Positions 14,128 to 15,897 of a stretch of DNA of 64,000 nt are shown here, piece by piece; positions within the stretch are counted from its first letter, which is position 1, and each line of letters begins with the position of its first letter. The stretch spans positions 5,208,001 through 5,272,000 of the forward strand of contig NZ_CP139559.1 in the NCBI RefSeq assembly GCF_034263275.1, given 5' to 3'. This DNA is from Mucilaginibacter sp. cycad4 (GTDB taxonomy: Bacteria > Bacteroidota > Bacteroidia > Sphingobacteriales > Sphingobacteriaceae). The position numbers and the translations under genes are program-made. The notes under the pieces are model-generated. The model was not told where the DNA came from and did not search any database. It was given only the letters and a program-made list of their open reading frames with translations.

Positions 14128-14160
14128 GTCATTTCGACCGTAGGGAGAAATCTCCTATGA
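14128..14160. repeat. GTCATTTCGA dispersed repeat, left half
   Basis: GTCATTTCGACCGTAGGGAG plus AAATCTCCTAT is one arm of a common Bacteroidota intergenic hairpin. The opposite-strand arm (AGATTTCTC...TATCGAAATGAC) lies at about 15830-15888, on the far side of the ncRNA and the IS110 element. The repeat may have been split by insertion. Confidence 0.6.
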
Positions 14161-14253
14161 TGAAAATAATCTAAAGCAAGGCTGATATTCCAGAATTGGG
14201 TTAATAGATTTTTTATAAAGTTATAATTTATAAATAATTAAGCAAAGCGTTGC

Positions 14254-14276
14254 CATGTTTTCTTAACTTTCCTTTG
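14254..14276 (+). promoter_or_regulatory. Probable promoter of the small RNA
   Basis: TTG (near 14250-14252) and TTCCTTTG (14269-14276), a 7/8 match to TAnnTTTG, are separated by 16 bases, a little short for Bacteroidota. The predicted start falls at about 14280, exactly where the first helix of the small RNA begins. Confidence 0.45.
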
Positions 14277-14278
14277 CA

Positions 14279-14376
14279 GATCAGAAGAGGAAACAGGCTC
14301 TGCTGAGGAGCAACCTGCCAGCAATATGATCCGCCGAATTAGATAAAAGAAGTCTCTGTAACAGGAGACTTTTTTA
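14279..14376 (+). ncRNA. Probable structured small RNA, about 97 nt
   Basis: A promoter-like site is followed by a compact structured segment and an intrinsic terminator, with no open frame. GATCA (14279-14283) can pair with TGATC (14327-14331). Inside, CAGG...CCTG enclose a small hairpin, which can be drawn as CTC-TGCT-GAG or as GCT-GAGG-AGC. CAGG (14294-14297) and AGCA (14309-14312) sit on opposite sides of the hairpin, as in the symmetric loop of small SRP RNA, but the GGAA tetraloop and long rod are missing. It could be a divergent 4.5S RNA, a 6S-like RNA, or a new sRNA. No gene follows on the plus strand for about 10 kb, so a riboswitch is unlikely. Confidence 0.5.
14350..14376 (+). terminator. 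Intrinsic terminator of the small RNA
   Basis: AGTCTC (14351-14356) pairs with GAGACT (14365-14370), followed by a run of T (14370-14375). This is a classic rho-independent terminator on the plus strand. Confidence 0.7.
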
Positions 14377-14464
14377 TTGTCTATCTTTTTCGCCCATGGC
14401 TAAGAAAACCTTCACCGACTTTTAGTGATGTTAATGCATCGATAAACAACAATCAATCTCCTAT

Positions 14465-14628
14465 AAGCGGACACCATAACGGGCCGCAGCATCGCGTTTA
14501 AATTATTAGATAAAATGATAACCGTAGTCTTATACAAGCAGACACCTCAAAAGGGCTGCGGATTTCTCATTCCGGTTTATCATCAGATAACAAAACAGAT
14601 TGTTTTATCCTGCATTATTAGTTCTATA
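14465..14628 (-). ncRNA. Candidate bridge-RNA region of the IS110 element
   Basis: Two related segments, 14465-14487 and 14536-14559, share the pattern AAGC(G/A)GACACC...GGGC(C/T)GC. On the minus strand each folds as a hairpin GCxGCCC-loop-GGTGTCxGC. A longer helix, TGATAAaCCG with CGGTTATCA, encloses the second hairpin, and GATAAAA/TTTTATC extends it. IS110-family elements encode a bridge RNA on the transposase strand in a non-coding end. IS1111-type members place it downstream of the gene, as here. The assignment is inference from position and structure. Confidence 0.35.
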
Positions 14629-15693
14629 TTATTGCACTACAGCTATTACATACGGAGCCTCGTTCTTCATCACATAACGGATCCGGTTGAGGATTTTTTT
14701 AGCTATCCTGATGATGGCATTATTCTTTTTCATCCGCTTGCAATAATCGTTAAATGCCATTGTCATAGCCGGATCGGTACGTATAGCTGTCCAACTGGCT
14801 TCAATAAGTTTTTCCCTGAGCTGGTGATTGGCCCTTCTGGTCAGGCCTGATACTTTTTCCTTGTCCCCGGTACTGTGAGTATTTGGCACAAGGCCAACAT
14901 AATCGCATAAAGCGTCAAGTGATTTAAACCGGTTAACATCTCCCACCTCTGTTACAAACCATAAAGCGGTGATCTCACCCACGCCTGGAATTGTCCGGAT
15001 CAGGGTTATTCTTTTCTTATACCGTTCCTGTTTGGACAGGATGCGAACTTGCCTGGTTGCAGCCAGCACCATATCCCGGGCCTGCTGGTAGCCCTGTAGC
15101 TTCAGGTCAAGTGCTGTCCTCGCCGATGGATTCAGTGACAGTTCTTTAAGCCAACGGGTAAAAACATTAGACCAATACCGGCTCTCTGATTCACCGAATG
15201 TTATCCCCTGGAAGTTAAGCCATCCCCGGATCCTGTTTTTATAACGCGTCTGGTCTTTTACCATCTGATTATAAGTGCGGATGATATCCCTGTCATCCTG
15301 TTGTTCAATGCCGGGAATAAAAATACCAGTGAGCTGACCTTTACTCAAGGCCTGACCCAATTTCCGGCAATCTACAAGGTCTGATTTGCGTTGCTTTTCC
15401 TTGCCTGTAGTCGGAACATCAGCCGGGTTAACCACGATGCAGTTAATCCCCGCCTCGTTAAATTTCCGCTGATGGAAGAAACCACAAAAGCCTGCCTCGT
15501 AAACAACATGATAATCCGCTAAAGGGTAATTGCGCTTCAGGTAAGCACTTAATTCTTCTGCCGATGGATTTTGCGAAAACGTCTTCAGTTCCATCTGCTC
15601 ACTCCGGATATTCACCTTCCATGACTTTTTATGAACATCTATGCCTGCAAAAATCTTTTGTCCGCTAAAATCTAATTGTGTAACTTGTTTCAT
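14629..15693 (-). CDS. IS110-family transposase (DEDD recombinase)
   Basis: A 354-residue transposase. The RuvC-like N-terminal domain has the four acidic residues D19 (AGIDVH), E66 (YEAGF), D105 and D108 (KSDLVD). The C-terminal transposase-20 domain starts near IPGVGEITA (235-243) and has the likely catalytic serine in THSTG (S274) followed by TRRANHQLR. Length and motifs are normal for a full, active-looking enzyme. It acts as an RNA-guided recombinase in characterised relatives. The start codon lies directly against one arm of a long inverted repeat (15694-15760) that could hide the initiation region. It has no accessory gene. Confidence 0.95.
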   Translation of the reverse strand: MKQVTQLDFSGQKIFAGIDVHKKSWKVNIRSEQMELKTFSQNPSAEELSAYLKRNYPLADYHVVYEAGFCGFFHQRKFNEAGINCIVVNPADVPTTGKEKQRKSDLVDCRKLGQALSKGQLTGIFIPGIEQQDDRDIIRTYNQMVKDQTRYKNRIRGWLNFQGITFGESESRYWSNVFTRWLKELSLNPSARTALDLKLQGYQQARDMVLAATRQVRILSKQERYKKRITLIRTIPGVGEITALWFVTEVGDVNRFKSLDALCDYVGLVPNTHSTGDKEKVSGLTRRANHQLREKLIEASWTAIRTDPAMTMAFNDYCKRMKKNNAIIRIAKKILNRIRYVMKNEAPYVIAVVQ

Positions 15694-15760
15694 GAGTTCT
15701 TGATTTAAAGTGTTTGTTCTTAGTTTTCACTTTAATCTACAACCTTTTTTTCAAGAACTC
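15694..15760. promoter_or_regulatory. Inverted repeat abutting the transposase start
   Basis: GAGTTCTTGA (15694-15703) and TCAAGAACTC (15751-15760) are perfect 10-base arms. An inner pair TTAAAGTG / CACTTTAA lengthens the helix. The inner arm touches the transposase ATG, so in the mRNA the initiation region would be paired. This could limit transposase translation or form part of a structured end of the element. Confidence 0.55.
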
Positions 15761-15829
15761 TTCTTTAACTAATTCATGCATACGATCTTATACAAGGCGT
15801 AAACTGTATGTATGTTTGTTTAGCGGCGT

Positions 15830-15888
15830 GCATAAGATTTCTCTTTCGCCCCAACACACTTTCCCTCTGCTTGCTCTATCGAAATGAC
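15830..15888. repeat. GTCATTTCGA dispersed repeat, right half
   Basis: ATAAGATTTCTC...TATCGAAATGAC is the reverse-oriented arm of the repeat whose left half is at 14128-14160. The two arms are 1.7 kb apart with the small RNA and the IS110 element between them. Confidence 0.55.
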
Positions 15889-15897
15889 AATTTTTTA

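What the first reader, a model, noticed from the sequence alone, without database searches (positions are those of the whole stretch)
14460..15796. IS110 element with a candidate bridge RNA in its downstream flank
The transposase keeps all DEDD residues and a plausible serine. The flank after the gene has two related hairpin segments (14465-14487, 14536-14559) and long-range helices on the transposase strand. The 11-mer TCTTATACAAG occurs in this region (14528) and again at the far end (15786). In IS110 elements the bridge RNA contains donor guides that match the element ends, so this shared 11-mer is a candidate donor guide.
Basis: partly seen in the sequence, partly recalled or inferred. Interest (0 to 1): 0.7.

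Follow-up and report, generated by a model that had tools for sequence, protein, structure and literature searches.

The report
Jumping gene carrying two RNAs
This is a jumping gene whose guide RNA appears to steer it into a repeated sequence of its host genome, and it also carries a second structured RNA, found in several unrelated kinds of jumping gene, that we could not match to any known RNA.

Summary
Four near-identical copies fix the element at 14152-15786 (minus strand, 1635 bp). All four sit inside one dispersed palindromic repeat, at GTATAAG|ATTTCTC. A bridge RNA (about 14448-14610, minus) lies after the transposase gene. It covaries across 28 relatives, and its two target guides match relatives' own flanks far better than permuted flanks. 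The shared 11-mer at 15786 is almost entirely flanking target DNA, so it marks a TARGET guide; the donor guide is 14457-14464. This is an IS1111-type member of a known kind.

Between the bridge RNA and the right end lies a second structured RNA on the opposite strand (14275-14413, plus). It shows strong covariation, a promoter-like box, a terminator-like hairpin and a covarying long-range pairing. No Rfam 15 family matches it convincingly. Similar RNAs lie near the ends of IS110, IS3, IS256, IS256-Zn, IS481 and IS30 elements in Bacteroidota, usually antisense to the transposase. Its function is unknown; I favour a transcription-control or regulatory RNA borne by mobile elements.

The parts
14152..15786 (-). 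whole IS element (IS110 family, IS1111 type), 1635 bp
   Evidence: four copies with the same ends, 1635 bp each; flanks differ outside
14629..15693 (-). transposase (recombinase) gene, 354 aa, DEDD
15787..15788 (-). core AG at the left junction (target side); the other core copy is 14152-14153 at the right end
   Evidence: AG[N4]TATG found at the left end of 33 of 42 elements examined
14448..14610 (-). bridge RNA (target loop, then donor loop); true RNA ends not mapped
   Evidence: A5, 28 relatives: 95.1% of cells paired, 13 of 17 pairs with two-sided changes
14561..14568 (-). right target guide GAGAAATC, complementary to right flank GATTTCTC
14457..14464 (-). left donor guide ATAGGAGA, matching the right end CATAGGAG
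14490..14498 (-). putative right donor guide AACGCGATG (only CGAT pairs directly with left-end ATCG)
   Evidence: inspection; weak
14275..14413 (+). second structured RNA, antisense strand relative to the transposase; true RNA ends not mapped
   Evidence: model R1 (built with this copy), 77.6 bits; covariation; strand test
14350..14375 (+). terminator-like hairpin plus T-run inside the second RNA
   Evidence: set statistics
14396..14410 (+). conserved tail ATGGCTAAGAAAACC; GCT (14399-14401) pairs with core AGC (14320-14322)
   Evidence: core/tail covariation; positions
15789..15897 (.). left part of the dispersed palindromic repeat that is the target
   Evidence: repeat matches (15807-15897); empty copies

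Best explanation
It is an IS1111-type IS110-family element. Its recombinase is guided by a bridge RNA read from the right non-coding end, in the order right target guide, hairpin, left target guide, then right donor guide, hairpin, left donor guide. The RNA pairs with the circular element's joined ends and with GTATAAG|ATTTCTC inside a host palindromic repeat; recombination is centred on an AG core and leaves no target duplication. The guide-flank and guide-end matches and the ends are shown by sequence; RNA expression, RNP formation, the circle and recombination are inferred from the family. The element also carries, convergent with the bridge RNA, a discrete structured RNA with promoter-like and terminator-like signals. 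I infer it to be a regulatory RNA that many Bacteroidota mobile elements share, perhaps one that controls or stops antisense transcription running inwards from the element end. That last function is a guess (about 0.35). The confidence given here is for the element and its bridge RNA.
For: Ends: 4 of 4 copies, 1635 bp each, flanks GTATAAG | ATTTCTC; TATAAGATTTCTC occurs 9 times uninterrupted in the genome, the pattern read backwards 0 times. Bridge RNA: 95.1% of cells paired, 83 two-sided cells against 29.0 shuffled, 0 of 500 shuffles as high. Guides: right guide against own flank, n=42, 8.29 of 10 matches against 6.04 permuted (5000 permutations, maximum 6.62); left guide, n=33, 6.97 against 5.89 (maximum 6.39). 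Near relatives L059 and L061 carry changed guides with correspondingly changed targets (for L061 only the right flank is held). Second RNA: 92.1% paired, 89 two-sided cells against 33.1 shuffled, 0 of 500; G.U 53 against A.C 9 in favour of the antisense strand; promoter-like box in 54 of 64 against a shuffled mean of 18.7; terminator-like hairpin in 53 of 64 against 13 and 11 in controls; core AGG with tail CCT 16 of 17 and with GCT 0 of 17, core AGC with GCT 36 of 43; six NCBIfam transposase families beside it.
Against: The window's own bridge RNA folds no better than its shuffles (z -0.18), so the case rests on relatives; one of five covariation measures is not unusual (134 of 500). The right donor guide match is weak. 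The SG-motif residue is Thr, so activity of this very copy is unproven, although four near-identical copies suggest recent movement. 8 of 42 elements have fewer than 8 of 10 matches to their right flank; L123 and L158 rank poorly; only 7 of 33 reach 8 on the left. In the second RNA the GCTG/CAGC helix hardly varies within IS110 and is not kept in several other loci (L181, L184); 18 of the 53 G.U cells come from one column pair; the terminator-like hairpin comes before the conserved tail, which argues against simple termination; among AGC loci the loose tail pattern CCT also turns up in 11 of 43; no expression data exist here.
Confidence: 0.9

Rival explanations
1. One reading: the element ends near 14460 and 15796 and the shared 11-mer is the donor guide.
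For: The 11-mer is present at both places.
Against: Four copies share 1635 bp ending at 14152 and 15786; the 11-mer at 15786 lies almost wholly in flanking DNA, which is unrelated between copies further out.
Confidence: 0.02
2. The hairpins are only 3' untranslated hairpins or terminators and the guide matches are coincidence.
For: The fold of this copy alone is no better than its shuffles.
Against: Two-sided covariation and own-flank matching outside the range of 5000 permutations for both guides.
Confidence: 0.03
3. The second RNA is a trans-acting small RNA of mobile elements that acts on a host factor rather than on its own element.
For: Own promoter-like box; shared by several transposase families; also found without a transposase nearby in contigs that look plasmid-, phage- or otherwise unlike an IS (L176; L184, L191; L262; contexts judged by eye).
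Against: In the IS110 and most IS3 and IS256 loci seen it keeps a similar place and antisense orientation beside the transposase, which suggests a local role.
Confidence: 0.35
4. The second RNA is a cis insulator or attenuator at the element end that controls transcription entering the element.
For: Position inside the end, reading inwards, with a terminator-like hairpin.
Against: IS481-like loci and L201 (IS3) carry it on the transposase strand downstream of the gene, IS30 upstream in sense; an insulator would not need a conserved tail after the terminator.
Confidence: 0.35
5. The second element is DNA, for example a binding site or cruciform used by transposases.
For: It lies near element ends.
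Against: G.U against A.C imbalance 53 to 9 favours RNA; it serves unrelated transposases; promoter-like and terminator-like signals.
Confidence: 0.08

Closest known systems
IS1111-type IS110-family elements with downstream seekRNA/bridge RNA (ISEc11, ISPa11; PMC11187229, PMC11208160, passages read)
   Same: long non-coding region after tnp; the guide complementary to the top strand comes before the bottom-strand match; subterminal inverted repeat; no target duplication; natural retargeting among relatives
   Different: 354-aa Bacteroidota transposase, 29-37% identical to the 15 best plasmid-borne relatives listed; AG core; short, bulged subterminal repeat in this copy; extra antisense RNA in the right end
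IS621 (IS110 group; PDB 8wt6)
   Same: DEDD recombinase with PF02371 domain; bridge RNA with target and donor loops; insertion into REP palindromes
   Different: the IS110 group carries its RNA in the left end and its target matches in the reverse order (passages of PMC11208160 and PMC11187229); only distant sequence similarity here (E 1.2e-6)
Antisense RNAs of insertion sequences (RNA-OUT of IS10, art200 of IS200; recalled)
   Same: small RNA on the strand opposite the transposase gene
   Different: as I recall, those are element-specific and overlap the start of tnp; this RNA has one conserved structure beside six transposase families and lies beyond the tnp stop codon in most loci seen
'Transposase-resistance' candidate motif (PMC2864571, seen only as a table row)
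   Same: named after transposase genes
   Different: structure not available to me; listed as possibly cis-regulatory in several phyla; could not be compared

Membership tests
IS110 family | DEDD (RuvC-like) N-terminal domain plus PF02371 C-terminal domain | tested here: met
IS110 family | serine in the C-terminal SG motif | tested here: inconclusive
   the serine column of ISCro4 falls on Thr275 of HSTG; a serine (274) stands one residue earlier. 5 of 89 genes scanned, this one included, have Thr there, each preceded by Ser. The curated NCBIfam cut-off is passed
IS110 family | bridge RNA with target and donor loops | tested here: met
   by sequence only, expression not tested
IS1111 group | long non-coding region and guide RNA downstream of tnp | tested here: met
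   right end 477 bp, left end 93 bp
IS1111 group | guide order: top-strand complement before bottom-strand match | tested here: met
   criterion from PMC11187229 (passages)
IS1111 group | subterminal inverted repeats, usually 11-13 bp | tested here: inconclusive
   about 9 bp with one bulged base in this copy (TATG(C)ATGAA); about 12 bp with one bulge in relatives such as L089, by inspection
IS1111 group | transposase falls with IS1111 in a tree | not tested
   no tree with named references was built
known Rfam RNA family (second RNA) | match to a covariance model at its gathering score | tested here: not met
   no match at gathering score over the element in the window; in E-value scans of the window region and 10 loci only sub-threshold hits to sraA, mir-87 and Phe_leader

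The most novel reading that the evidence does not exclude
The second RNA (14275-14413, plus) belongs to an undescribed class of structured RNA carried by mobile elements of Bacteroidota. One conserved fold, with its own promoter, a terminator-like hairpin and a long-range pairing that changes in step (AGC/GCU, AGG/CCU, single cases AGU/ACU and UGC/GCA), has been taken up by elements of at least six transposase families, several of them unrelated, and apparently by some phages and plasmids. It acts as a shared regulatory module, independent of how the element moves.
Probability: 0.6. Interest if true: 0.8.

Novelty: new variant of a known kind. Interest (0 to 1): 0.62.

Why it matters
The element gives a clean natural example, with about 40 relatives, of bridge RNAs retargeting by guide change, mostly in Bacteroidota, which could supply new programmable recombinases. 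The second RNA, if confirmed, would be a regulatory module shared by transposons that otherwise have little in common. That would raise a testable question: what do such different mobile elements gain from the same RNA?

Tried and rejected
Folding the bridge RNA of this copy alone gave no signal over shuffles, so I used relatives. Rfam: at gathering score only rRNA and tRNA in the window; E-value scans gave three sub-threshold hits, sraA in L163 (33.3 bits against 56; it overlaps the second RNA region, on the other strand), mir-87 in L124, and Phe_leader at 14343-14465 minus (21.4 bits against 55; overlaps the second RNA, on the other strand), and none in six more loci; I took these as chance. 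I considered an HDV-like ribozyme for the second RNA because of a recalled resemblance of its tail to HDV J4/2, and rejected it because the order of helices differs; no test was run. I considered a peptide start in ATGGCTAAGAAAACC and rejected it because the ATG or frame is broken in several loci. A plasmid search with the B. finegoldii copy gave no match. A DNA-only reading was judged unlikely on the G.U/A.C test. I could not test how common the RNA is outside Bacteroidota.

Rows dropped or chosen: in the guide tests, 89 elements gave 51 with two motif hits; L105, L110, L125 and L141 were dropped by hand because the second hit did not look like a right end, leaving 47. Three with under 12 bases of flank and two duplicate Draconibacterium copies were dropped, leaving 42. 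33 of these 42 had a findable left end. A5 uses 28 of the 89, picked by me; A2 and A3 use 28 and 26 sequences. The second-RNA statistics use 64 distinct loci picked by me from loci (66 sources). P1 pairs were taken at the register that maximised pairing. The 33-of-80 count of second RNAs in IS110 loci is a lower bound, since many contigs end early.

Full report
What is there. The window comes from a 7.11 Mb single-contig genome of, by inference, the genus Mucilaginibacter: genome G054, listed as the same genus, has a 65,780-base contig with the same element as a 65,780-base record named Mucilaginibacter sp.. A search of the genome with the region found four copies of the element. Over a 1,400-base comparison on the transposase strand, copy B has one mismatch to the window copy and C and D none. 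The shared block is 1635 bp, window 14152-15786, in 4 of 4 copies, with left flanks ending GTATAAG and right flanks starting ATTTCTC.

Target. All four flanks belong to a dispersed palindromic repeat; one search lists 31 further short matches, all within its left part. TATAAGATTTCTC occurs uninterrupted nine times in the genome; the pattern read backwards occurs zero times. Intact repeats read straight through the junction, for example TTGTATAAGATTTCTCCCTACGGTCGAAATGACA in L021. No target duplication beyond the shared core is seen. This resembles IS621 and other family members that insert into REP elements (PMC11208160, passages).

Bridge RNA. An alignment of the right non-coding end of 28 relatives gives a consensus of a target-loop stem, a target-loop hairpin and a donor-loop hairpin: 95.1% of cells paired, 13 of 17 pairs with changes on both sides, 83 two-sided cells against 29.0 in shuffles, none of 500 as high. 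One measure, further pair types, is not unusual (134 of 500). Counted by hand from the pair tables, G.U outnumbers A.C by 31 to 3, which puts this RNA on the transposase strand. The fold of this copy alone is unremarkable in energy (z -0.18), though it shows the target-loop stem and both hairpins.

Guides. In the two nearest relatives (67% and 63% identity) the donor side is constant, while the target guides differ in step with the flanks; for L061 the contig starts inside the gene, so only the right flank and empty repeats in the same contig can be compared. For 42 relatives, the best match of the complement of the right flank in the RNA's 5' part averages 8.29 of 10, against 6.04 when flanks are permuted (5000 permutations, maximum 6.62); 34 of 42 reach 8, and 31 of 42 have no better RNA in the set. 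For the left flank, 33 relatives average 6.97 against 5.89 (maximum 6.39); 7 of 33 reach 8, and 15 of 33 have no better RNA; this copy has 10 of 10. L158 and L123 fit badly. The left donor guide resembles the right element end in the 47 relatives that were selected for having both motifs. The right donor guide is weak.

Group. The right end (477 bp) is longer than the left (93 bp), and the guide complementary to the top strand comes first; both are IS1111-type features (PMC11187229 and PMC11208160, passages). The subterminal repeat is short and bulged here, longer in relatives. No tree with named references was built. Solved relatives are ISCro4 and IS621, both distant. The serine column of ISCro4 falls on threonine 275 here.

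A second RNA. Between the bridge RNA and the right end lies a block more conserved than its surroundings in many relatives. Read on the plus strand it forms an outer helix, an inner hairpin with an AAC bulge, a second stem capped by a terminator-like hairpin, and a conserved tail. In 26 sequences 92.1% of cells pair, 12 of 21 pairs have two-sided changes (3 of 500 shuffles as high), and 89 two-sided cells compare with 33.1 in shuffles (0 of 500), with sharp loss on sliding. Four inner pairs (GCTG/CAGC) hardly vary and are unproven. G.U outnumbers A.C by 53 to 9 on this strand, or 35 to 9 without one column pair, so the RNA is antisense to the transposase. This copy's own fold has z -2.41. A TANNTTTG-like box (at least 5 of 6) ends within -12 to +3 of the model start in 54 of 64 loci, against 20 and 16 in the next windows upstream and a shuffled mean of 18.7 (maximum 27 in 200 shuffles), peaking at one spacing. 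That TAnnTTTG is the Bacteroidota -7 box is recalled. A hairpin plus T-run follows in 53 of 64, against 13 on the opposite strand and 11 of 64 further downstream. The core triplet and the tail change together: AGC with GCT in 36 of 43, AGG with CCT in 16 of 17 and with GCT in 0 of 17, plus single cases AGT/ACT and TGC/GCA; two loci had no readable core, and among AGC loci CCT also occurs by the loose pattern in 11 of 43. Both states occur within IS110 (AGG in L073, and in the weak hit L100), within IS256 (L183 AGG, L189 AGC) and within the IS256-Zn variant (L196 AGC, L216 AGG) (families), so the switch is unlikely to be one inherited event.

Where it occurs. In this genome: four hits, exactly the four IS copies. 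In samples that overlap and include this genome: 63 of 395 genomes of the class, 12 of 395 of the phylum, 24 of 301 of the family (strict filters that lose weak matches). In 80 named IS110 loci: 33 with a hit at E up to 0.1 (one weak), all 33 antisense to the transposase. In the one-contig genome G069: 13 hits, of which 11 were checked and are antisense to an IS110 transposase gene or, in two, a degraded piece of one; the other two sit at a pair of nested copies. Outside IS110, neighbouring proteins pass NCBIfam cut-offs for IS3 (L201, L210, L212, L215, L220), IS256 (L183, L189), IS256-Zn variant (L196, L216), IS481 (L168) and IS30 (L174); IS3 and IS481 resemble each other, as do the two IS256 types (cross-hits in the same calls). 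In the multi-copy cases that show an element end, the RNA starts roughly 40-60 bases inside it and reads inwards; in this window the distance is 123 bases. Exceptions: IS481-like loci L168, L169, L179 and the IS3 locus L201 carry it on the transposase strand downstream of the gene, and in the IS30 locus it lies upstream in sense. Of the 26 class loci opened, 14 show a transposase gene or piece next to it; several of the other 12 are cut by contig ends. Some loci have no transposase recognised nearby (L176 plasmid-like, L260, L262, phage-like L184 and L191; contexts by eye). Of 11 viral contigs with the exact core pattern, R1 matches all 11, but only 6 over all 63 positions, plus one cut by a contig end; two of the weakest (L188, L194) look like chance.

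Novelty. The element is a well-documented new IS1111-type member. The second RNA has no Rfam 15 match at gathering score in the window and only weak sub-threshold hits in E-value scans, and ten paper searches listed nothing that I recognised as describing it; I saw listings, starts of abstracts, and passages of three papers. Subscription papers and supplements were not searched. The 'Transposase-resistance' motif of PMC2864571 could not be compared. What the RNA does is open. I favour control of transcription at element ends or a small regulatory RNA, at about equal odds. Because of this second RNA I file the whole as a new variant rather than a plain new member.

Noticed in passing
window 14275-14413 and loci L168, L174, L180, L183, L196, L212, L216: Similar structured RNA near the ends of IS481, IS30, IS256, IS256-Zn and IS3 elements; treated in the report as the second RNA.
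   Followed up: yes
window 15693-14629, residues 273-276 (HSTG): Threonine at the column of the SG-motif serine; 5 of 89 genes scanned, this one included, have Thr, each preceded by Ser.
   Followed up: partly
L112, L116, L154 (after the bridge RNA): A different block in the same place, with a strong hairpin (in L154 with a loop that looks like a tRNA T-loop on the opposite strand) and a conserved CCGAAGG-like motif.
   Followed up: no
L092:3841-4051: Two tandem copies of the second RNA, 149 bases apart, in Bacteroides timonensis.
   Followed up: no
L060, G069:C1:848576-851594: One IS110 copy appears inserted inside the bridge RNA region of another identical copy.
   Followed up: no
G000, e.g. 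C1:3519426-3519491: Large family of palindromic intergenic repeats (GTCATTTCGA...) used as the target; several intact copies seen.
   Followed up: partly
G000:C1:222623, 896266, 4245265, 6726785, 7050551, 7092605: Six places with a distant IS110-like match (33% identity over 79 residues), perhaps another multi-copy element.
   Followed up: no
L187, L190: Phage-like contigs with the inner hairpin of the second RNA between what look like small and large terminase genes (gene names by eye).
   Followed up: no
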